Assembly: GCF_001577835.2 (NCBI RefSeq)
Contig: NC_029516.1
Coordinates: 69,608,380 to 69,672,379, forward strand
Direction: 5' to 3'
Origin: Coturnix japonica
Taxonomy: Eukaryota > Chordata > Aves > Galliformes > Phasianidae
DNA length: 64,000 nt
The position numbers and the translations under genes were made by a program. The notes under the pieces were generated by a model, which worked only from the letters and a program-made list of their open reading frames with translations, was not told where the DNA came from and made no database searches. Shown here piece by piece: positions 8,801 to 49,300 of the stretch (position 1 is its first letter; every line of letters begins with the position of its first letter).

Positions 8801-10365
8801 AACGCGGACTTTAACGCCTGTCCTCTGAATCCGTCACCATTAAATAACTCCATATTCAAAGCTACATGTAGCGTTTTCAGAATTTAATTGCTAAACCTTT
8901 GCTGCCATCCCCTCTTTTTCCAATTCATCCTTGTCACACAAGATCTAACGCATTCAATTATCTCCTCAGTGCACATCACACAGCTGCAGACACAACCCTG
9001 ATGTTCCTGTTACTGATCAACTCTTACAATAAAACCCGGATGCTTAATTCTTCTGTTCTTTGCTTTTCCTTCTTTTCTGTCATGGAATGGAAACAAGTCA
9101 GAGAAACTTTGCTCTGGCATCTCCCCTGATACCCCCAAAGGGCCAAATGATCATTTTAAAGACAGTTCCAGTGCTGTCTGCTCACTATGATTTACATTAG
9201 CTCTCCCTCCCCTGTTATTTCGCTATGGAGCAGTTCTGCTCTTTATGCATCACAAACCCACGTCCTCCTCCAATGGTACAGCTTCAGCATCTGCATCAGA
9301 ACCAAACCAAGAGCAGAATACAGTTCATACCCTTTCTGCCAGCAGATATGAATCTTCCACCCCTTTTAACGCTCCCCCATGTGCACAATTTAACTGTCCT
9401 TTGCAATGTGAGCAGAAGCTCCCTCAGGATGGGTCACCTGGGCTCTCTGTGTGATGAGCTGCGAGGCGTTGAATTTGGCCACCACGCTCTTGAGCACCTC
9501 GTTGACGATGGAGGGCAGGACTCGCTCCTCGTAGTCCAGGCCCAAGCGCTGGTACATGCTGGGCAGCTCAGCCGCATTGGGGCGGGTGAGAACACGCAGC
9601 GAGATGTTCACCATCTGCAGGTCTGAGGAGAGAGACGTGAGAGGGGTTGGACTTCAGCCTTCCCGCCTCATGGGCCCCGCTAAGGTCTACTCTTACCTTT
9701 GGAGCCTGTGGGGGAGGAAATCTTCCGTGGCCGGGCCCGTATGTCATAGATGATGGGGTACTGGAACCAGGGGATCCTGCGAACCATCGGGAGGTTTAAA
9801 GGAGGCCGTATAGGTGACCGGACTGATCACAAAATCACAGAATGACCCGGGTTGGAAGGGACCTCAAGGATCATGTAGTTCCAACCCCCCTGCCTGGCAG
9901 GGCCACCAAACATACACATTTACTAGATCAGGTTGCCCAGGGCCCCGTCCAACCTGGCCTTGAACACCTCCAAGGACGGGGCATCCACAACCTCCCTGGA
10001 GCGGCCTGTTACCGGCCTCACCACTCTCCTAGTGAAGAACTTCCCCCTGATGGGGGGAGCGGAACTGGTACAGGCCTACTGAAGTGCAGCCCCTCAGCCA
10101 GGATGGTGTCCTGCTGCACGCCGCCGATGCGTTGAAGAAGATGGCCCGCTGCCCGCCTTCCACTGAGGGGAGAAACGGCACCGTCAGCGCTCAGGTGGGA
10201 CGAGGGAAGGACGCGGGGTCCCGGGGAGCACTCACCGATAAAAGACGGACTCGCGGACTCCATATGCCAAGGCGCCGGCGCCCAGCAGCAGCTTGAGGGC
10301 GGTGCCGACGCCCCCGCGGCCCAGCCGGCAGCCGCCCCGCCAGGTCCTTCAGGCCTCTGCGCCAT
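5805..10365 (-). CDS. PHB2: PHB2, prohibitin-2
   Basis: Inner-mitochondrial-membrane scaffold that forms rings with PHB1; also a mitophagy receptor and nuclear corepressor. Exons 5' to 3': 10365-10236, 10162-10080, 9776-9697, 9622-9438, 8667-8538, 8075-7972, 7531-7454, 6905-6829, 5838-5805. Exons 3-9 read cleanly and nearly match the human protein through the SPFH domain ([18 protein letters not shown]) and the coiled coil ([18 protein letters not shown]), ending QGKK. Intron 6 is AT-AC. In exon 1 the frame changes three times by an extra base; exon 2 lacks one base internally and one at its donor. Allowing for these gives 299 residues, the human length, so I read them as probable sequence errors in GC-rich DNA. 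The ATG at 10365 is followed by Ala-Gln as in human. Confidence 0.95.
7532..7971 (-). other. PHB2: AT-AC (U12-type) intron in PHB2
   Basis: Intron between PHB2 exons 6 and 7. The minus strand starts ATATCCTGC directly after codon ATG and ends CCCTGTAC directly before CTCGGTGAA, which joins ...AAKM to LGEAL.. as in human PHB2. The minor-spliceosome donor consensus is ATATCCTT. A branch-site match TTCCATAAC (consensus TTCCTTAAC, one mismatch) lies at 7552-7544, about 13 bases before the AC end, the expected spacing. No GT or AG gives a sensible join here. Confidence 0.88.
9834..10051 (-). repeat. CR1 LINE 3' fragment in PHB2 intron 2
   Basis: Begins ATCACAGAATGACCCGGG and runs through GGTTGGAAGGGACCTCAAGG and further CR1 3'-end sequence, antisense on the plus strand. 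It ends about 30 bases from the PHB2 exon 2 donor. It is nearly identical to the copies at 24613 and 26236, so it is a young insertion. Confidence 0.92.
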
Positions 10366-10552
10366 GGCCGCGCCGCAACGCGAGCCCCACGGGAAGGACA
10401 CCGGAAACTGCCGCCGCCACCGCGCCTTCCGCCGCGCTCCGGAACTGATCCCGGGGAGGAGGAGGAAGAGGCAGGGCGCCATCTTGGGTGGCTGCTCGCC
10501 AGCATTGGCGGCGCTCTGCGCGTCACGCTGCGTCGCGAGGCTCAGACACAAA
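10366..10552. promoter_or_regulatory. Shared PHB2/EMG1 promoter
   Basis: The PHB2 and EMG1 start codons point away from each other and are only 187 bases apart. The gap is GC-rich with many CpGs and no TATA box that I can see, so both genes probably use one bidirectional CpG-island promoter. Both are housekeeping genes, and the same head-to-head arrangement is known in human. Confidence 0.75.
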
Positions 10553-12622
10553 ATGGCGGCGCCCAGCGGCCGCGTTTGAAGAGAACGGAGGAGGAGGATG
10601 ATGATGATGCTCCGCTGGAAGCGAAACGTGTGCGGGGGCAGCGGCGGCTCCTGGTGGTGCTGGAAGGGGCGAGTCTGGAGACGGTGAAGGTGCGGACGGG
10701 TCGAGCCGAGCCGGGGATATTCGCTGTTTCTGTTGTCAAACTGTCCGTGCTTTTGGCTTTAGGTGGGGAAGACGTTCGAGCTCCTCATTGCGACAAGCAT
10801 AAGGCGCTGCTGTCAGGAGCGGAGCAGTGGAGGGACCCGGGGAGGTGCGGCCCGACATCACACACCAGGTACTGGCTCCGTACTGACCACCATGGGCTTG
10901 TATGGGCCGCGTGGGGCATTATCTGATGGCTTTGGATGTGTGAACGGAGTTAACTTCACCACCATACTTGTGCTTAATAACGTGTACAATTCAGTTTGTG
11001 TATGAATGGGATTGCTGGTTTCTCAGCATAACAGTTGTGCTTATGGGCCACCTGGATTCTTTATCTCTTGTTGCTTCTGCAGTCATAGAGCCTTTCCCAA
11101 GATCCCTCCCTGGTGCCTTTTCATTTTACGCTCCTGCATATTCATTTGTATTGTTTTTCATTCAGAGTCTTCTCATGCTCATGGATAGCCCTCTGAATAG
11201 AGCTGGCCTCTGCAAGTTTTACATCCATACCCAGAAGAATGTTTTAATTGAAGTGAATCCTCAGACCAGGATCCCGAGAACTTTCGATCGATTCTGTGGC
11301 CTTATGGGTAAGCGATTCATGCTTTGCACTGGCCGCAAAATGACGCAGGTTGCCAGCCACGTCCTACAAATACATATTCCTTAATACAGTGGGGACTGGA
11401 ACAGGCTGCCCAGGGAGGTTGTGGATGCCCGTCCTTGGAGGTGTTCAAGGCCAGGTTGGACGGGGCCCTGGGCAACCTGACTCTAGTAAAAGGTGTACTG
11501 TTTGGTGGCCTGCAGGCAGGGGGGTTGGAACTACATGTCCTTGAGGTCCCTTCCAACCCGGTCATTTCATTCTGTGATTCTGTCACTGGCCCGTATGAGA
11601 ATGTGCTGATGGCAAATTAACTCCCTGATGGGTGTTTTTTGTTGTTGGGTTTATTTTTAAGCTCCTCTAGAGGATGCTGGGAGCTCTGAAGTTCTTTCCT
11701 AGTTGAGCTCTCATTGGTAGGCAGAGAACGTGCTTCCTTCAGCAAGAGAACAGCCTGCTTAACTAATGTTCTTCTGTTTTGTCAGTTCAGTTGCTGCATA
11801 AGCTCAGTGTTCGAGCAGCTGATGGTCCTCAGAAATTGTTGAAGGTAAGTAGTCATTGAATGTTTATGGGCAATGGTGCAAAGATTCCTCTTTGCAGCTA
11901 GTAACGTATTTGCTTTAAGCACAGATTTGTCTATTTGATAGAGCCTCTTACCTCTACACTGCCATTAATATTTCTCTTCTCTACAGGTCATTAAAAATCC
12001 AGTCAGTGACCACCTACCTGTGGGCTGTATGAAGATCGGTACCTCTTTTGCTGCTCCAAATGTGACAGATCTGCGTGAACTGGTTCCTAAAGCAGAGCCC
12101 GTAACCATTGTTGTGGGAGCTTTTGCCCACGGTTCAGTAAGTGCATGTAGCCTTTTTACTTGGGAGCTGTAAATATCTTTATGAACGTAGATTTTAGTGC
12201 CCCTCTTGAGGTTGGTTTGTTTGTTTTTCTTTTAGACTAATCTATTCTTTGGGAACTTCCCCCCCAACCCCTTCTCTGTTAAGAAACTGCCCAGCCTTGT
12301 AATAGTTGGGCCTGTCATTGAAGAGAGGGCATCATTGCTCTGAAGAGATTTAAAGTGCAATATTAAGTCTCGAATGAAACAATGGTCATATAGAGAGCAA
12401 TGGATGTGGCCGTTTGAAACTGAATGGAAGTAGAGTGGATTAAGATAGTATGGCAGCTTGCTACGCAGTCAGAGATATTATTTATGCCTGTCCTTTCTCC
12501 CCCCAGGTCAATGTGGACTATACAGAAAAGACGATCCTCCTATCAGCAACTATCCCCTGTCTGCTGCCCTCACATGTGCTAAAATTACTACTGCCTTTGA
12601 GGAAGCCTGGGGAGTACTATGA
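10553..12622 (+). CDS. EMG1: EMG1, 18S rRNA pseudouridine N1-methyltransferase
   Basis: SPOUT-family Nep1 enzyme of the nucleolar small-subunit processome; it methylates the hypermodified pseudouridine of 18S rRNA. Exons: 10553-10689, 10763-10868, 11166-11307, 11786-11844, 11987-12136, 12507-12622. Recognisable blocks: [70 protein letters not shown]. Exons 3-5 are clean. Exon 1 needs one extra base between MAAPSGR and LKRTEEE, exon 2 needs two (around 10787 and 10841), and exon 6 breaks near 12546, after which the expected C-terminus ([12 protein letters not shown]...) continues in another frame to TGA. With these allowed, the product is about 237 residues (human 244). I take the breaks as sequence errors rather than gene decay. 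Confidence 0.93.
11387..11585 (+). repeat. CR1 LINE 3' end in EMG1 intron 3
   Basis: Sense CR1 tail: GGACTGGAACAGGCTGCCC, then GTTCAAGGCCAGGTTGGACG, GGTCCCTTCCAACCCGGTC and terminal ATTCTGTGATTCTGT. It ends with the family's short terminal repeat and so is 5'-truncated only. Sequence resembles the young copies at 9834 and 26236. Confidence 0.92.
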
Positions 12623-13509: not shown

Positions 13510-16500
13510 TTATTCTGCTTTTTTTAGCTTTTCTTTTCGTGGCACAAGTAATTTGCGAATATAAGGCAACACCAGTAATAAGGTGAAAAACAACATGTGG
13601 CCGAGGAAATAAATAGACTTGTACACCTGTAAAGAGAAAGGGTTAAGGGTCAGCAAGCAGACTTCAGCTAAGACCACATGAGAGGGCAAGCAGGGGTAAA
13701 AGGGATTGGTGGCGTGGACTGTGTGTTTAAGGTTAATAAATACCTTCATCCATTTGTCCCAGGTGAAAAGGCAAAATGGCACCAGAGAATAACCCATAAA
13801 CATCCAGTGGTTAGTCTGCTGCAGCACATAGAAAACAGGCTGCAAGGCAGTGATGGAGGCCAAACGGCTTAAAGTAGGACTGTCCCGAACAAGGTTTATA
13901 ACCTAGTGGAAAGAAAAATAAAGCTTTCCTCAGCTGGATATCTTATGGTTGTATCTGTAGGCTCTGCAGCCAGAGTATCCTTGTTAATTAACTTTGGTAA
14001 CTATGCAACAAAAAACTAAGTACGTACCCTATTCTTGAAGTTTTAATCAAAAAAGAAAAGGCTAACTATGGAATACTTTTCTTTCACTACCTGAGATTTA
14101 GCAGAAGCTTTCTGCTCATGTGCTTGTCTTCCAACCTTCCCAGCTGGCAAGCACTTCAACTGTGCTATGCTCGTGCCAATTGTGCCGTAAAAGCTGATGG
14201 GAAGAAACCTATGGAGTACTAGCGTGGAAGCTAGGAACCTACTGAACCCCTGAACAGAACAGTACCATGTGTGAACACCAGTTTCTAAGTGAGCAGTTAT
14301 TAAACCCTTCAGTGTGGCAGTTTCCAGACTCAAGAGGAAAAGCTAATGCAGGCGACCTTATTCTGCTAAGTCTGACAGAGCGCACCTGTCTTTCAACGAT
14401 GACTATGAGCAACTCCATTTGAAAGCACACCAGGTAGCCAGAGTGTAGTCCATGCCAAATAGCCAGGAAGAACAGGGCCAGTGCCTGTGACAGCAGTTTG
14501 TTACCCAGGAACTTCAGGCGCTTGAAGATGTAGCTAGAGCAGAGAAGAAACAAAGCGCTTCTAGTTCATTGTTTATCCTTCTCTCTCCATGTCAGAGATG
14601 CAAGGCCCAGGGGACTGTGTCTTCACATTTCCCTGTGGTAACAGAAACAGCTAGACAGCTCCCCTTAACACGGCAACTTACACTTCAGTCCTTATCTTAA
14701 AGAAATGCCAGCTAGTGGGGATAGGTGGTTCTTCTGACAACACTCATAGAAATGAAGATATTTTACAATTCAGTTGTGGTCCAGCAAGATCTGAACCAAA
14801 ACCTGTCTGTATAGGAAGCACCAAGGCTGAAGTAGTTTGGAGACTACCTCTTGGTTTCAACTCTTCTGCAACTGTTTGACCAAGAAGGCAGGAGGGCTCA
14901 CTGGAGTTCCATTCTAACCTCCTCCCACCAGCTTCTACCATTTTCAACTTCTTGCCTCTGTTAACAAAGAACTGCCTTTTTAAATTGGATCGAAAGATCT
15001 ACCCAACTCAGGAAGCTGTTTCCAATGGAAGAAGTGTGAGAACAGAACGAGGAGTTGCCAGGTACACCCTTCTCAACTTAATGATCTTGGTTCTGTTGAC
15101 AAAGGTACTACTGACATTACAGATGTAGAAATTTGTCCTGCTCACCGGGCCACCCAAGCATTGGTGTTGATATTGAAAGAAGCAATGGTCCCTGTGAAAA
15201 AAGGCGTTGTCTCATACAGCCAGACCTTCATATTGGCACAGGCATCCCACAGAGGTTTTCCACTCTGGTCTTTCCCGTTGTACCCTAGACCAACAAGGAT
15301 GCAGACGCCTTCCTATGGAAAAAGACACAGAAGAAAGATGAGAAAGGCAGAGCTGGGGAAGTTCTGATTCTGCAGACGGTACCACTGCAGATAGAGGAAA
15401 CGGGTTAAAATCTCCTTTTCATCAGTTAGCCCTTGCTTTACTTACAGCAAACTACACTGATCTGCACCGGTATTTAGACACTTGAATTGCATCCTATTAG
15501 TGCTAAGTCCAAAAGAGTACTTTGTAACTTCAAAGGTGCTAACTTTGTACATTTGCCTTGTTTGCAGAAATACTTGTGACTCACCGTAACAAGCCAGCAA
15601 GTTACATATTTGTAGAGGATAATTTTGCCCCAGACCAGTATGTAACCACAGCGGAACCAGAAAGGCTTCTCCTGCAGAGATAAAACAGAATAAAAATGAA
15701 TGAGTTCTGGCTATATATAATGTGGATAGATGAGATCTCATCACCATCTTTCATTTTAATCTAATCAATATGTTGCTACACTAAATAAACTGGACTACCA
15801 GGCTATGGGGTTATTTGATTTCATACACTTTTTTACTTCCTTTGGTGATATTTGATTATTGAAACAAGTACTCTGGAATTAGTATTAAACATTGCTGGAA
15901 TTGATACCCTCTTTTATTCACGCTGGTACAGTTATAGGAAGGCATAGCACCAGTTGCTGACTTATCTTATCTTTGAATTGAGGCAAACCTAAAAAAAACA
16001 GAATGATTTTCGTCTACTCTTGTGGATCCAGTGCCCTCCAGAGAAGTAGAATTTTTCCACATATAAGAACTGTGAAATATATACATACCATGTAATCATC
16101 TGAGATGAGGTATTCATCAGAGATGTATGGGCTTGACAAGGTATAGGTCACTAGAAATAAGAGACCCAAACTCAGGCGCTTGAGAGCAGGCACAAAACTG
16201 AGAAAGAAAAACATGAAGGTCAAGGAAAAGCTCTGTTTAAAAACAGAAGTGGACGTGAGGAGTTTGGGGAGACAGCGATAGGGGGTTACCACATTCCACT
16301 GCAGCAGATGCCTCTACTTGGAAGCTGGGGTGCTGACCATACCAGGTCAGGACTGAGTCTGTACTAAACAAGTCAAGTGTTAATATTTGTGCCCCCGAAT
16401 AATGCTAGGAAATTATGCAGAGTTTATAAGCAATTTCTGAATGGCTGCCTTCTCTTATAAAAAAACTTTTAGTCACAGTATTTCAGTGTCCAGGTAAGAA

Positions 16501-18679
16501 TGCACTCTGCTGCAGGGAATGCATGGAGGATTCAGCATTCTGGGATCTTAGGAAAGCAAGGAGCTAAGTGGATCTCATTACCTATTGGGTCTCTGGCCTG
16601 GAACGTCAGTCATCTCACCCTTTGCCAGTTTCTGATAGTCTGTCATGGAGAACTGAGGCCCCACCATGAAGGCACCATAGAAATAGGAGAATCCTGAGAC
16701 CTCCAGCAAGGTAGGAACTCCCCGGACAGCAAATCGACGCTGCTCAGGGGTCAGGAACTCCTGCACCAAAGGGATTGGATTAACATCATCCTAAGGGTTG
16801 TTATACTTAGCTCTGGATGTTTTCAGTGAATCTCCTTTTTGGTCTAAGCTCTTGCTCTCCACATACAGGGAACTTTTCACTTTGTACTTCATGTTTGTTC
16901 CTCTCCTCATCCCTCTCACTCTATCTCCGGTCAATCCAAACAGCAACAAAATCCAATAGCTGAGACCAGTTGCACAGGTCTATATTCCCAAAAAAGCTCA
17001 AAATAAGGAAGAAATCTATTAACATGCATCCCTGCCAGCACAGATATGCCGTAAGAGCTCTGTATCTGACCATTACCAATCCCTGACTGCAACAGTATGT
17101 ACCCAGACCGTGCTGCCCTACAGTTCCTACTGTAGGAACTCACCTTCCTACAGGAGGTGAGAAACAAAGACGCCTGAAGTAGGATTAAGAGACTGTTAAA
17201 AGTGTTCTGTCCTTTTCCACACACCGCGCTGTGTGACTTCTGTCACCATTTAATCTTCTCTAATATCGGGGCCACAACAAATGGCAAAAATCCAAGAAGG
17301 TACGATATGACTCAACAAAAGAAAGGAAGATGGGAACTGAGATCCAGCGCTGATGGTTTGCGCATTAAGGGAATACTACGCACAAGACACAGAGCATTGG
17401 AGATTGGGAATCTAAAGCAACGGATTTGGGGATAGCACATGGTGGGGAATTTGGATGGGGGCAGAACAATATTTTGACACAATTCAGTGCTTAATCAACC
17501 TTTGTCCATCTGTAATTGCTACTGTTTCCATTTTGAACTATCTTTTTTCCACTCTGGAATTCAGCGTTATTAGATATTCACGGATACCCCCCTCTTGGTT
17601 CTGGCTTTTGCTGAACAATGAATGCAGCTTACTAATTTACATCCTTTGAACATGATTTTCTGGCTTCTAGATCACTAGAATAGCAAACAAGAGGAAGGAA
17701 GGAGAATTTGTGTTTTACTCACCGGATCTTTTCCTCCATCATAGTAATCGATGGCCAGACCTAGAGGTGAGAAACAATCATGTGAAGATCTGTGATGGAC
17801 TAACTGGGCTGAATAAGCAGCCTTCTTTTCCCTGAGGCATGGCTTACAGAATGCAAAAGATAACAAGACAGCATTGCTTACCAATCAACTTGAGAGTCAA
17901 GACACAGTGTGGCATCGTCCACTTGATGTCATAGTGCTCTGTGGCTGTGAAGTAATAGCCAGCCATAAGGTACGTCTGAAAGAAACCATTATTTGGGTTA
18001 TTTAAAGCAAACCTCCAGCAGCTTTTTGATCTATTTCCACTTTTCCAACTATATTTGCTACTGAGAATTGCAAAAATGAACAGAGAACTCTTTCTATGAA
18101 CTGATACAAAACCTCCTTAGGAGGAAGTTTTTCACTCAGAGGGTGGTGATGCACTGGAACAGGTTGCTCAAGGAGGCTGTGGTTGCCCCATCCCTGGAGG
18201 CATTCAAGGCCAGGCTGGATGTGGCTCTGGGCAGCCTGGTCTGGTGGTTGGCAACCCTGCACATAGCAGGGGGGTTGAAACTGGATGATCATTGTGGTCC
18301 TTTTCAACCCAGGCCATTCTATGAGTCTATGATGCAGTAAGAAAGGGAATTTTACCATCTGAAAGACAAACGTGGTGAGGACGGCAGTGACTGTGCGACC
18401 CATAAGTCTCAGGATGAGAAACTGGATTAGGACACATAGCAGTGAATGAAAGAACTGCATCCCTGCGGAGAGAGAGAGATGAAGAAAAAATGAGATTTTT
18501 CCCATTACAGGTCCTCCCAAACTGCAGCAAGCTCTAGGCTTAATAGCTCTCTTTTCCAAAGCTCATCTTACCAAAATTGAAGTAAGCAATTGAGAGTCCT
18601 GTGAACACATTGTAGAGATGAATGAGGTAGGTCTCCTTCTGGAAGAGGAAATAGCGCTGGAACAAGGCAAAAGGATATC
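13510..18679 (-). CDS. LPCAT3: LPCAT3 exons 2-12 (MBOAT5)
   Basis: ER multipass lysophospholipid acyltransferase that puts polyunsaturated acyl chains into phosphatidylcholine in the Lands cycle. Exons 5' to 3': 18679-18572, 18462-18356, 17975-17882, 17760-17723, 16760-16582, 16197-16089, 15671-15585, 15312-15146, 14533-14386, 13902-13744, 13626-13510. All phases agree and the stop is TAA. Family features: the MBOAT Asn region (SFNINTNAWVAR) and catalytic His (FLAIWHGLHSGY), many hydrophobic helices, and an ER-type lysine-rich tail (PRKEKLKKAE). With exon 1 (25510-25606, on the other strand) the total is 469 residues, against 487 in human. The separation and flip of exon 1 are the oddity here; the body of the gene looks intact. 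Confidence 0.96.
18120..18336 (+). repeat. CR1 LINE 3' end in LPCAT3 intron 3
   Basis: Sense CR1 tail: GGAAGTTTTTCACTCAGAGG, CACTGGAACAGGTTGC, CATTCAAGGCCAGGCTGGAT, ending ATTCTATGAGTCTATGAT, the family's terminal octamer-like repeat. It stops about 20 bases from the donor of LPCAT3 exon 3 (18356). Confidence 0.92.
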
Positions 18680-24612: not shown

Positions 24613-24885
24613 ACAGAATCACAGAATGACCCGGGTTGGAAGGGACCTCAAGGATCATGTAGTTCCAACCCCCCTGCCTGGCAGGGCCACCAAACATACA
24701 CCATCAGTTGCCCAGGGCCCCGTCAACCTGGCCTTGAAACACCTCCAAGGACGGGGCATCCCACAACGACTCCGCTTCCTGGGCCAGCCTGTTTCTAGGG
24801 CCGTCACCACTACATCCTAGTGAAGACTTCCTGTCCCTAACATCCACTAAATCTTCCCTCTTTTAACTTAAATCCATTTCCCCAG
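24613..24885 (-). repeat. CR1 LINE 3' fragment (left arm of inverted pair)
   Basis: Antisense CR1 tail whose first ~90 bases are the same as those of the 9834 copy (ACAGAATGACCCGGGTTGG...). Beyond 24690 it differs mostly by single missing or extra bases (CCCCGTCAACC for CCCCGTCCAACC; TTGAAACACC for TTGAACACC), which looks like raw-read noise. It is the mirror partner of the copy at 26236. Confidence 0.92.
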
Positions 24886-25029
24886 GTTCCTCTTTCTGTC
24901 CCTCAGTGCAGGAGGCAGCCCTAGAAAGTCAGTCCTGCAAGAGTCTGTGAAGAACTTGTGGGGGTCTCGTACAGCTGTGATCTGTATGAACATAATAACA
25001 CACATTAGCAGAGGCGCTGTGTCCGCACT

Positions 25030-25509
25030 GTGCGGCTCAATGAGGCCCCACATCCCCCCGCCCCCTGGTCGCGGCCCGGTTCCGCTCTAACGGCTCTTAG
25101 CGCCACGCGCCGCTTGCCCGCGAGTAACCCCTACTGGGGCACATCCCCTACCCCTCCCTGCCCGGCTCTCTCCTGTCCCGGCTCAGCCAATAGGAAGGCG
25201 AGCTCCTCCTGCCCGGCTCGGCCCCGCCCCCTTCTCTCGTGTGAAGCCCCGCCCCCTGGGGAGCTTCGCTCCAATCACTGATTTAAGCGGGACAGCTCGC
25301 GGCACCGCCACTCGCTGGGTAACCTTTGCCTTACTGAGCGCGGAGCCCCGCCCCTCTGCCAACGGCCGTCCAATCGGAGGCGCCGAGCGGGCGTGGCCGG
25401 AGCCGCTCAGCCAATGGGCGACGAGAGGGACTAGAGCGGTGCGGGGGCCGCGGTGTCGGTGCCGCCGCTGGGTTCCAGGAGCAACCGGCCGGCGGGGCCG
25501 GCGGACAAC
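25030..25509 (+). promoter_or_regulatory. LPCAT3: LPCAT3 CpG-island promoter
   Basis: GC-rich block directly upstream of LPCAT3 exon 1. It carries four CCAAT boxes, all on the plus strand (25187, 25271, 25370, 25411), and several GC boxes (CCCCGCCC near 25214, 25246, 25347). This is a TATA-less NF-Y/Sp1-type promoter reading in the same direction as the exon, which confirms the plus-strand orientation of the block. Confidence 0.75.
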
Positions 25510-25606
25510 ATGGCGGTGTCGGGGTCCGGCTGGAGCCTGGCCCGGGCGGCCGAAGCCCTGGGCTCGTCCGAGCAGGCGCTGCGCTCATCGTGTCCATTCC
25601 TCATGG
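25510..25606 (+). CDS. LPCAT3: LPCAT3 exon 1, inverted relative to the rest of the gene
   Basis: ATG at 25510 opens 32 codons plus one base to a G|GTAAGG donor. The peptide has ALGSSEQALR, matching SLGASEQALR of human LPCAT3, and its phase fits exon 2, which starts by completing a Gly codon before YPFALF. After ALR the reading (SSCPFLMG) has the same length as human LIISIFLG but not its residues; a missing C and an extra C a few bases later would explain this. The exon is on the plus strand while exons 2-12 are on the minus strand 7 kb away, so a normal LPCAT3 transcript cannot be made from the sequence as assembled. Confidence 0.88.
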
Positions 25607-25976
25607 GTAAGGGCGGCGGGGCCGAGGGCTTCCGGCCCCGGGTACTGGACCCCACGGTCAGCGGGGCCTCTGCGGGCAGAGGGCGGGCGGAGGGGAGACC
25701 CGTGTCCGGGCGGCTGGCCGGGGGGGACAGCCCGGCGGAGGGACCTGTGGGTCCGGATAGAGCGGGGCGATGGGCAGCAGCGTCCTCAGCGCTGCTGGGC
25801 GCACAACTTAGTTGGAGGAGTTGTATCCAGAGCTGGGACGGACACGCCGTGATACCGAGCCCACCGCCTGGGCGGGACGGCACACGGCGCTCAAAGCCGG
25901 TGTCACATATGGATCCGGTGCTCCCTGAACTCCAGCAGCCTGGGGCTGTGGAGCGCTGCCCCGTGTCCCACGGCCC

Positions 25977-26235
25977 NNNNNNNNNNNNNNNNNNNNNNNN
26001 NNNNNNNNNNNNNNNNNNNNNNNNNNNNNNNNNNNNNNNNNNNNNNNNNNNNNNNNNNNNNNNNNNNNNNNNNNNNNNNNNNNNNNNNNNNNNNNNNNNN
26101 NNNNNNNNNNNNNNNNNNNNNNNNNNNNNNNNNNNNNNNNNNNNNNNNNNNNNNNNNNNNNNNNNNNNNNNNNNNNNNNNNNNNNNNNNNNNNNNNNNNN
26201 NNNNNNNNNNNNNNNNNNNNNNNNNNNNNNNNNNN
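25977..26235. other. Assembly gap (259 N)
   Basis: A run of Ns. The base after it starts mid-CR1 (CTAGTAAATGTGTATGTTTGG, less its last base), the reverse complement of the inner part of the 9834 copy. The gap therefore lies in or beside a CR1 repeat. Any open frame crossing it is an artefact. Confidence 0.97.
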
Positions 26236-26335
26236 CTAGTAAATGTGTATGTTTGGTGGCCCTGCCAGGCAGGGGGGTTGGAACTACATGATCCTTGAGG
26301 TCCCTTCCAACCCGGGTCATTCTGTGGTTCTGTGA
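26236..26335 (+). repeat. CR1 LINE 3' end (right arm of inverted pair, cut by gap)
   Basis: Sense CR1 tail: TTTGGTGGCCCTGCCAGGC, GGTCCCTTCCAACCCGGGTC and ATTCTGTGGTTCTGTGA. It is the exact mirror of the start of the 24613 and 9834 copies. Its 5' part is lost in the N run. Confidence 0.92.
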
Positions 26336-44348: not shown

Positions 44349-45610
44349 TCACTTCACTTTCTGGAAGACCTGAACACAGACCTCGTCTTCAACCGTCATG
44401 CGCTGCGGAAAGGAGGAGAAAGAGGAATTCAGGCTGCAGCCCCATGTCTTCCAGCTGAGTTTTGGCAGGTCATCCTGAGGGTGGAAAGGGCTGCGGCTGC
44501 TGTTGCATAAATTTAACTTTTGAACTCTGGCGGCGGATGTTTATGAGAAGTGGCCATTGCTCCTGAGGAGCCGGGGTGAAGACTGAGAGGAGCTGGAAGG
44601 AGGCTGCTCAGGTTCACTAACAGCACACAGCATTCGGCTGTGCCCCCCACCACCCACCAGCCAAGCTGCACGGGCCCTTCCTCACCAGGTGCAGCAGGTC
44701 TCCCTCCAGCCAGTGCCGCCAGCCACGGTTCCTCTTCTCCCCGAGCTGCTCACATACCAGCTGGTCGCCCTCCCAGAAAACAGTCGTCTGAAAAACAAGC
44801 AGAGGGGAAGACGTGGGCCCAACAAAAGCAACACAGCTTTCCAGTGATGACACTGAGCGTTCCTGTTGTATTTTCAAGTGTGGTCCCCAATATGGTTGAA
44901 TTCCCTCGGAGGGCTCCTTGGGACTTTTTGTCAAGCTCTAGTTCCCTTCTGGATCCCAAAGCTCCAGGTCTGGCTGTGTGTTGCTTACTCCCTTCGCTGG
45001 GAGCAGTTCACTTACAGACTCCATATCTCCAGACCTGCGGGGCAGGCCAGCTCTGGGCTGGACTCTCACCTTGCTGGTGAACTAAAAGCCAGGCAAGTCC
45101 CTGAAGTTCTAGTTCATTCATTACCTAGCCCCGTTGGGGATCCTCACCTGGCACTTGCGCCCATCTACGGGTCCCAGGTCTTCCTCAAACTGGACCCCCA
45201 GATCAAAATCCATGACATAATCCCTCAGGGAGGTGATTGTGCGGATGACCATGTGGTCTCCCGTGTGGATGATCTCTTTGTCAGGCTTCAGCAGGCAGAC
45301 CACCTTGCGCAGGACCACGTTGATATCTGGAGGATGAAATGGAGGGAAAACGGGTGGGCTGCTCTCTGCTCTGGGTAGGGGGCTTCAGCTCCAGGGATGC
45401 CTCCTCTCCCCCTCCCACCCAAAGCCATAGTCTCAGCTGGAATGACCAAAGCCCCTTCCTCCCCTTGCCAGGTCCCGCGGGCTGACATCTTTGGAGACGA
45501 AAAGGAGTTAAGAGGGAAGGAGGAGGGGGGTAGTTACCCAACGCGCGAAGATAATTGTCCATATTCTCCTGGGAGACGAAGCGGTAATAGCCGCTGAGGT
45601 TGGGCACCAT
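44349..45610 (-). CDS. RBP5: RBP5, cellular retinol-binding protein III-type
   Basis: Small cytosolic beta-barrel lipocalin relative of the fatty-acid-binding protein family that binds retinol. Four exons, the family's standard number: 45610-45538, 45326-45148, 44787-44686, 44402-44349; 135 residues, the human RBP5 length. Recognisable: N-terminal [53 protein letters not shown], and the C-terminal CVQVFQKVK. Residues favour RBP5 over RBP1, RBP2 and RBP7 (human RBP5 starts [14 protein letters not shown]). The ATG at 45610 is the only one fitting the family start. It is head to head with CLSTN3, as in human. Confidence 0.95.
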
Positions 45611-45984
45611 CCCGACACGGAGCACGCGGCTGGTGGCTGCGAGGAGCGGGGAAGCGCTGCCCGGCGCGGTGCGGAGCGGAGCGGGGCGGGCCGGCCGAGC
45701 AGCGGGCTCCTCGCCGAACTAAGAGTCCCGCCGGGCCCGCCCCGCTCCGCTCCGCTCCGGCACCTCCGGCTCGGGGCGGGCGAGCAGCGACACACCCCCG
45801 CGCTCCGGCTGCGGGGCCGCCGCTCCCGCAGCCCCGGCCCGTGACGTCATGCTGCAGTGGCGGGGCGGGGCCGCGGCGGAGCCTCCGAGCCGCCGAGCGA
45901 GGGCGTGGGCCGGGCCGGGCCCGCCGCTGTCCAGCACCGCCGGGCGGGACGGGAGCAGCAGCCGCAGCCGCCGCCGCCGCCGCT
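45611..45984. promoter_or_regulatory. RBP5/CLSTN3 bidirectional CpG-island promoter
   Basis: The 374 bases between the two divergent start codons are extremely GC- and CpG-rich, with many GGGGCGGGG-type GC boxes (for example around 45680-45690 and 45861-45870) and a TGACGTCA full CRE palindrome at 45842-45849. No TATA box seen. The CLSTN3 5'UTR ends in a (CCG)n run just before its ATG. Confidence 0.75.
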
Positions 45985-46337
45985 ATGGGAGGCCGTCGGC
46001 CCCGCGCTGCCGTCCTGCTGCCGCTGCTGTGCCTATGGGCCGCGCTGCCCGGCGGCTGCCCCAACAAAGGTGAGCCTTTGATTTGACATCCCCTTCTCAT
46101 TTGCCCCCTTTCCACCCGCTCGGCTCGCCTTGTGATAGCTCTTGCCGTGTGCCTTTAGCTCTTCTCCCGTAGCACGCCGAGAGGGAGTGTGTTGCACCTC
46201 CACAGAGGCACATCCCCCATCTCCATCTTCTCATTCCAGCCCATGCGTCTAGAATATGTCAGTAGGAAACGATACAGCGGCTACGTGTTATCTGTGCAGG
46301 TGGCTTATATAAAACAGTGCTTTATGTGCTAAATCGG

Positions 46338-46368
<31 letters not shown>

Positions 46369-49300
46369 AAGGAAAAAGGAAAAAGACCAAACCCGAATGC
46401 TGCAGCTCCAGCACGTTGCATGCAGATGTTCTCAGAACACACAAAGTGAAGGGGAAAGATGTAGGTTACTAGAGCTGGGGCTGCAGCCACGGGCACAAGA
46501 GATCCATTTGCATGGATCCAGGGGAAGATAAGCATCTGTTGGGGTGGGAGAACCCAAAACGTGCAAGGGCTGCAGGAGCCATCGGGGATGCGGCAGCTTG
46601 ATGTGCTTGCTGTGCTTGGGGAGGGGTGGGGGCTACAAACAGGGTGCAGCACGATGCTCTGTGTGTGCCAGTACCAGCAGGGGCATTTATTTGTGCTGCT
46701 CTGGTGCTGCTGGGACCAGTTGTAAAGCCAGGCCCCTCATGGTCTGTATTTTCTCTCTTTGTGAATTTACACTCCGAAACACGTACACGTCCTTGGCAAC
46801 CGATTTCAGCTTTACAGGAGCTTTCTTGAAGATGGTATGAGTCTGCATCCTATAAATAACCCCCAAATGTATCTCTAATCCCCAAGAAATCATTTTCTAA
46901 GAAATCAGATTGGTGATTCCCAAGGTGCAGGTGGATGCAGCAGAAAAGATTTCTTTCTCACCCACCAGCTCGTTACCCCAGCAACGGGGCGTATTTAGCA
47001 TTGGTAGTTATGGGTTCCTACCTCATCAGAGAGGTGTGCGGTCTGGGACTGACACAGTAGGATGTGGCGAGGGCAATGGAGGGATGGGGCAAAACATGGA
47101 TGCTTGTACACAGGGAGGATTCCTCCTGCATACTGAGCAAGGTGGATGTTTTTCTGGATTTCCTACGCAGCGCTTTGTAATCTTAATCGATACGGTGGAA
47201 GAGAAATGCCAGCCCTCACCTGGCTGGGTCTGCCTGCTCTGCCTACTGGTGCATCCCTGCTCAGACTGCTGTTCCACCACTGGCCCACCCAGCTCCAGCA
47301 GCACCCCTAGGTGCTGAAGTACAGAAAAGGCAATAAATCACAGGGGATGTTGTCCCTCTTGAGTCGACACAACCGCCGTGGCGGTGTGTGCTGCAGAGGA
47401 TGAATTCACATATTGGAAGTAGTGCCCTTGAGGGGAGAGTCTCTGTATCCTGCTCTCTACCAGCTCTGAGCCATGCTGTGTGCACAGTGTCGCTTGGTTG
47501 TAATAAATCTTGCTCTCCAGAGGGTGGGAGAGGGGGGGGATTATCTGGGAATGGGGTTTGTAACTAGGACGCGTAATATAATCTCTGAGGCCCATTTGGC
47601 AGGGAGTGGGCATGGGGGAGGGGTTCTTCATTTATAACGATTTTACTTCTCTCCCCTCCGCCCTTTCCCTCCTTTATTTCTCCTTTTCCCTGCCCTGGAG
47701 CCTATGTGATAAAGATTAATTTGCTATTTCTGGGCCTGTGACATTTTTCAGAGCCTCCGGCTGGCTGCTGCCTCCATGCCAAGCCTGGCTGGGCTACAGC
47801 CAATGGAACAGCAAGGAGGGGCCAAAGGAATATGGTGCCCACCATGGAGTGGGGAAGGAGAAAGCAAGGGGCTCAGCAATTTGTTTTACATGCGGGGTGG
47901 CTGACTGGATGTGTAGCTGGGGGCACACGTGTGGATCCTTGCCCTTGTACAGAGGGTGAAAGACTTGAATGATAATGGATGAATGCAGCTCTTGTCTTCC
48001 GGGGACACCCCAAGGGAAGATGTCTCCTGGATCCTTTACTTACGACTTCAGTGATCTAAAGTGTTTAGCATTTGGGATCTCTTTCCAGAATCAGAATACT
48101 TGTCCCTCTTGATTTCATTTTTTTATAATATCCCAGCTTCCATGGTACACAAATATCCCTCTACATGCTTCTAACAAGAGAGTATTGAGGAGCTGAGAAG
48201 GAACATGATGTTTCTACCAGGAGAGGTAGAATAGAATAGAAGAAATATGGTTTCCTCTTCCCAGTCTCTCTTAGCCTTTATTCTAGAGATGAAGGTGGGG
48301 AGGGGTGGTTGCTAAATGCTGCTGCATGATACTCTGCTTTTTTCTACTGAGCCTATCAGTTTGGCTAATACTTTCCCATCCTCAATCCCTTACCCAAACT
48401 CACCTCAGCGAATAAGCACAAACCCTGGATTGAAGCTGAATATCAGGGCATCGTCATGGAGAATGACAACACAGTCCTGCTCAACCCGCCGCTGTTTGCA
48501 CTGGACAAAGATGCTCCTCTGCGCTATGCAGGTAGGTTGGTGCCAGCTCTGGGGAGGTTGGGATCAGGAAGAGATCTCCAGGGAGGCAGAGGCAGGAATA
48601 CATTTATCCCCATACTAGATTCTGTTTAGGAAATGATTGCCTCTAAACCTTGTTCTAGAGAAGGTCCCTGGTGTAGTCTGCAGACAATTTGGGCATAGCT
48701 TGATTTAGGATCCTCTGAGCTATTTCCCTTATAAGAGGAACTGAGGGTGGAGCCAGCTACTTTTTGACGCAATTCTGCTATTTTCAAAGATCACATGCAC
48801 AGCTCTGTGTCTGTGAGGTCTGAAGGAAGCTGCTAGGGCACACTTCTAGGGCTGTTCCACATCCCTCACCAGAAGCACAAGTCCCTGAAAGCACAGATGA
48901 TGCTTTGATGCTTTTTTGAGGTTTGTATTCCTAGCACTTGCTTAGACTGTGCCTCAGGTGCTGCACTTCTGCAACCTCCAACAGCCCCAGGGAGAGGAAA
49001 AGGGGTCCTGTGGGCCAGGATTTAGGTGATCTTATCTGTAACTCCCAAAGGAAATGTACGTATCCTGTGTGGGATGGATGAGACATCATGGAGCTTCGTG
49101 TTTTGGATGTCTGTTTGAAATGCTTTGCCTTCCTGTGGGATGGAGAGGCAAACTAAGCTATGCTTGGATGTAGAGCCCTAACACGTACAGTTTTAACCTG
49201 TAACCTCAAGCCTTTCTTGGAGCTGAGCGAGACTTCTCATGGGGATGGTCTCCGGTAGAGGGCAATCTAAACCATTATTGGCTGTAAACTGATAGGGGAA

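What the first reader, a model, noticed from the sequence alone, without database searches (positions are those of the whole stretch)
24613..26335. LPCAT3 promoter and exon 1 are flipped between inverted CR1 copies
Seen: exon 1 (25510-25606) and its CCAAT/GC-box promoter read on the plus strand, but exons 2-12 read on the minus strand. The block is bounded on the left by a CR1 tail in antisense and on the right by the mirror CR1 tail, next to 259 Ns; the two arms are the same young subfamily and near-identical. Inference: either a contig was placed in the wrong direction across a repeat-caused gap, or CR1-CR1 recombination truly inverted about 1.7 kb and separated LPCAT3 from its promoter. Misassembly is more likely because the left CR1 arm shows raw-read-like indels and human LPCAT3 is colinear. 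As assembled, an LPCAT3 promoter faces C1S.
Basis: partly seen in the sequence, partly recalled or inferred. Interest (0 to 1): 0.72.

Follow-up and report, generated by a model that had tools for sequence, protein, structure and literature searches.

The report
Wrongly flipped assembly patch at LPCAT3
The start of a bird's LPCAT3 gene lies backwards in this assembly almost certainly because a poor-quality piece of sequence was joined the wrong way round through a common CR1 repeat, so this is most likely an assembly error rather than a real change in the bird's genome.

Summary
LPCAT3 exon 1 (25510-25606) and its CpG-island promoter read on the plus strand, while exons 2-12 read on the minus strand. 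CR1 tails with outward-facing 3' ends bound the block, and 259 Ns sit beside the right one.

The block looks like a gap-fill patch joined the wrong way round. The left CR1 is clean for its terminal 89 nt (0 indels), then shows 14 indel events in the next 146 alignment columns, so a quality seam lies at 24701/24702. Exon 1 carries a compensating -1/+1 frameshift relative to chicken LPCAT3. Coding sequence outside this patch and a similar one at the PHB2/EMG1 promoter is frame-intact over about 3.8 kb.

The arms match at 88/89, but a third CR1 copy at 9829 matches the left arm equally well, so their similarity is a subfamily trait, not a sign of recombination. Flipping the block restores a colinear, phase-compatible LPCAT3. 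No other CpG island in intron 1 could replace the promoter, and LPCAT3 loss is neonatally lethal in mice.

The same error type (KCTD15, inverted contig carrying its first exons) is published for the old zebra finch assembly. A true inversion is not excluded: no reads or second assembly could be examined.

The parts
24613..24701 (-). CR1 3' tail, left arm, clean (3' end points left)
   Evidence: 88/89 to right arm and 88/89 to the copy at 9829, no indels
24702..24979 (-). CR1 body of the left copy, indel-rich; start of the low-quality patch (right limit of the CR1 estimated by eye)
   Evidence: 14 indel events in 146 aligned columns against the copy at 9829 versus 0 in the 89-column tail; Fisher p=0.001
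24980..25509 (+). LPCAT3 CpG-island promoter and 5' UTR, in plus orientation
   Evidence: CpG island 24801-26200, GC 0.67, o/e 0.78; four CCAAT boxes all in plus orientation
25510..25606 (+). LPCAT3 coding exon 1 with a -1/+1 indel pair near 25585 and 25599
   Evidence: match to chicken LPCAT3 7f3x; frameshift-aware alignment
25607..25976 (+). start of LPCAT3 intron 1, up to the gap
   Evidence: GTAAGG donor; sequence
25977..26235 (.). 259-N assembly gap, the only one in the window
26237..26333 (+). CR1 3' tail, right arm, clean, first 97 nt of the contig after the gap
   Evidence: 97.9% to 9829-9925 without gaps
13513..18679 (-). LPCAT3 exons 2-12, 11 coding segments, no frameshift

Best explanation
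This is an assembly artefact. The GC-rich LPCAT3 promoter and exon 1 block (about 24702-25976) was probably missing from the main contigs and added later as a low-quality patch. Contigs ending or starting about 90-97 nt inside a young CR1 tail flank it on both sides. The patch ends in CR1 sequence, and through the shared CR1 tail it was attached to the left contig (tail at 24613) instead of, in reverse, to the right contig (tail at 26333). In the real genome LPCAT3 is most likely colinear on the minus strand, with promoter and exon 1 upstream of exons 2-12 on that strand and divergent from C1S. Shown here: the orientation, the seam, the indel-rich patch, the shared CR1 tail and the compatible splice phase. 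Inferred: the gap-filling step and the true orientation.
For: Quality seam at 24701/24702: 0 indels in the 89-column tail, then 14 events in 146 columns, p=0.001. Exon 1 reads ...ALRSSCPFLMG where chicken has ...ALRLIVSILMG, explained by one missing and one extra base. Frameshift-aware alignment found 7 events in 611 nt of patch coding sequence and none in the roughly 3 kb of LPCAT3, PHB2, EMG1 and C1S outside the patches; three calls inside C1R sum to one codon in an open frame and were counted as zero, p=1e-6 on that count, p=8e-5 with them kept. The third CpG island (45.2-46.4 kb) has an intact RBP5-like exon, so high GC alone does not explain the errors. Both clean contig edges stop about 90-97 nt inside the CR1. 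The spliced phase fits exon 2. There is no CpG island in 18.7-24.6 kb to act as a replacement promoter, and LPCAT3-null mice die within days of birth (PMC4436788). Precedents: the KCTD15 inverted contig with GC-rich first exons in the old zebra finch assembly (PMC9516821), and PBJelly one-sided extensions of GC-rich gap edges in a bird (PMC7757076).
Against: The left joint contains no Ns. The left copy lacks the 8 nt TAGTAAAT that the right arm has at 26237-26244, so the patch does not overlap the right contig perfectly; the deletion lies exactly at the seam and can be a stitching scar, but this is not proven. No reads, second assembly or named species were available. A real inversion could also lie within a badly sequenced region.
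Confidence: 0.93

Rival explanations
1. A true inversion of about 1.7 kb in this bird by recombination between two inverted CR1 copies, which cut LPCAT3 off from its promoter.
For: Two real, inverted CR1 tails with different 3' flanks and 88/89 identity bound the block. The gap could hold the rest of the right CR1.
Against: The only link between the block and the left flank is a repeat tail where sequence quality changes abruptly. The arms are no more alike than the left arm is to a CR1 15 kb away. No alternative CpG promoter is seen, while exons 2-12 stay intact and about 97% identical to chicken (418 of 432 residues). Loss of LPCAT3 is lethal in mice.
Confidence: 0.05
2. One single CR1 copy represented twice: both arms are the same element read from overlapping contig ends.
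For: 88/89 identity between the arms.
Against: The arms differ in the terminal octamers and have different 3' flanks, and the right arm has TAGTAAAT where the left lacks it. The same identity is seen with a clearly separate copy at 9829.
Confidence: 0.02

Closest known systems
[quoted passage not shown]
   Same: GC-rich first exons of a bird gene on an inverted piece of assembly next to gaps, with exons that then cannot be annotated
   Different: There the contig is surrounded by gaps; here the left side is joined without Ns through a CR1 tail
False indels in GC-rich 5' exons of bird genes (PCDH17 example, PMC9516821)
   Same: Frameshifting sequence errors in a GC-rich first coding exon
   Different: Here the errors follow a patch that also includes moderate-GC sequence (CR1 body; EMG1 exon 3 in the other patch)
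PBJelly-type one-sided gap extension in a bird assembly (PMC7757076)
   Same: Added sequence is GC-rich and attached to contig extremities, leaving a residual gap
   Different: The assembly method of this window is unknown, so the tool is only a model

Membership tests
Misoriented assembly patch | Gene order or strand broken within a conserved gene | tested here: met
   Exon 1 on +, exons 2-12 on -
Misoriented assembly patch | Joint lies in a repeat shared by both candidate edges | tested here: met
   CR1 tail, 88/89 between the edges
Misoriented assembly patch | Change of sequence quality at the joint | tested here: met
   0 versus 14 indel events either side of 24701/24702
Misoriented assembly patch | Reads contradict the joint | not testable with these tools
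   No reads or genome held
True CR1-mediated inversion | Inverted homologous repeats at both breakpoints | tested here: met
True CR1-mediated inversion | Both breakpoints supported by unique flanking sequence in single reads | not testable with these tools
   No reads
True CR1-mediated inversion | Unusual similarity of the two repeats to each other (supportive, not strictly required) | tested here: not met
   A third copy at 9829 is as similar

The most novel reading that the evidence does not exclude
A lineage-specific CR1-mediated inversion has really moved the LPCAT3 promoter to face C1S, and LPCAT3 survives from another promoter.
Probability: 0.04. Interest if true: 0.65.

Novelty: not a real feature. 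Interest (0 to 1): 0.1.

Why it matters
As assembled, gene annotation would lose the start of LPCAT3 or predict a false inversion and a promoter driving C1S. The indel seam inside a repeat is a simple sign by which such misjoined patches can be found in bird assemblies.

Tried and rejected
The window's own genome is not held, so a second placement of the block or read support could not be examined. Arm identity as evidence of recombination was rejected because a third copy is as close. High GC alone as the cause of errors was rejected: an RBP5-like first exon in the third CpG island is intact, and EMG1 exon 3, outside the GC-rich core, carries a compensating indel pair. Three frameshift calls in C1R were rejected as alignment artefacts because they sum to one codon in an open frame. 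A literature search for chicken LPCAT3 exon 1 gave nothing useful. The species could not be named; two differences from chicken in exon 1 show only that it is probably not chicken.

Full report
What is there. The unaltered translation of 25510-25608 (+) matches the N-terminus of chicken LPCAT3 (7f3x, E=1.4e-8). Exons 2-12 lie on the minus strand between 18679 and 13513, with MBOAT domain sequence in them. The exon 1 donor and exon 2 acceptor fit in phase and read ...LMGYPFALFQRYF. The promoter is a CpG island with four CCAAT boxes, all in plus orientation. CR1 tails at 24613-24701 (minus) and 26245-26333 (plus) bound the block with their 3' ends outward, and the only N run in the window, 259 nt, precedes the right one.

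Are the arms special? They match at 88/89. A third CR1 tail at 9829-9917 matches the left arm at 88/89 and the right arm at 87/89. The arms are therefore ordinary copies of a young subfamily. They have different terminal octamers and different 3' flanks, so they are most likely two real copies.

The seam. Against the copy at 9829, the left CR1 shows 0 indels in its 89-column tail and 14 indel events in the next 146 columns (p=0.001). Several of these are single-base events at positions where the copies at 9829 and 11400 agree with each other. The left contig thus appears to end at about 24701, inside the CR1, and what follows is of poor quality. The right contig begins 97 nt inside a CR1 tail. 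Both edges stop at about the same depth in the same repeat, as expected where an assembler breaks at a repeat.

The patch. Exon 1 reads ALRSSCPFLMG where chicken has ALRLIVSILMG. One missing base and one extra base about 14 nt apart explain this. A query in which that stretch was written as in chicken matches 7f3x better, but it was edited by hand and serves only as an illustration. A second patch of the same kind covers the PHB2/EMG1 promoter region (about 10.05-11.58 kb): frameshifts in PHB2 exons 1-2 and EMG1 exon 2, a compensating pair in EMG1 exon 3 (GGCCTCTGCAAGTTTTAC for a protein stretch that reads GLLQVY in human; read by eye), and an indel-rich CR1 at 11400-11583. Human PHB2 and EMG1 were recalled from memory and confirmed letter for letter against PDB entries. 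The patches hold 7 scored frameshifts in 611 nt of coding sequence. The rest (3786 nt) holds none if three mutually cancelling calls in the open C1R frame are set aside (p=1e-6); with them kept, the difference is still p=8e-5. An RBP5-like first exon in the third CpG island at 45.2-46.4 kb is intact, so GC content alone is not the cause.

Interpretation. The block hangs on the left contig only through a repeat tail that the right contig shares in the opposite direction. Flipping it puts exon 1 on the minus strand with the gap in intron 1, giving a colinear LPCAT3. As assembled, LPCAT3 would have no evident promoter: 18.7-24.6 kb has no CpG island. Yet exons 2-12 are intact and about 97% identical to chicken (418 of 432 residues), and LPCAT3-deficient mice die within days of birth (PMC4436788). 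A misjoined patch is therefore far more likely than an inversion. The same type of error was documented for KCTD15 in the older zebra finch assembly (PMC9516821). One-sided extension of GC-rich gap edges with long reads has been reported in bird assembly work (PMC7757076). That a gap-filling program did this here is an inference.

Limits. No reads, no second assembly and no species name were available. The missing TAGTAAAT at the seam means the patch does not overlap the right contig perfectly. A real inversion is kept at about 5%.

Noticed in passing
window 10045-11583: A second low-quality patch over the divergent PHB2/EMG1 promoter, between an inverted pair of CR1 copies (9829-10044 clean, 11400-11583 indel-rich), with frameshifts in PHB2 exons 1-2 and EMG1 exon 2, and a compensating pair in EMG1 exon 3; the gene order there is not broken.
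   Followed up: partly
window 10549-10700: EMG1 exon 1 reads MAAPSGRV then stop from its ATG, while the conserved frame ([24 protein letters not shown]) is shifted, probably another indel error.
   Followed up: no
window 45201-46400: CpG island with an RBP5-like exon 1 on the minus strand and a CLSTN3-like signal peptide exon on the plus strand, apparently intact; named from memory of the families.
   Followed up: partly
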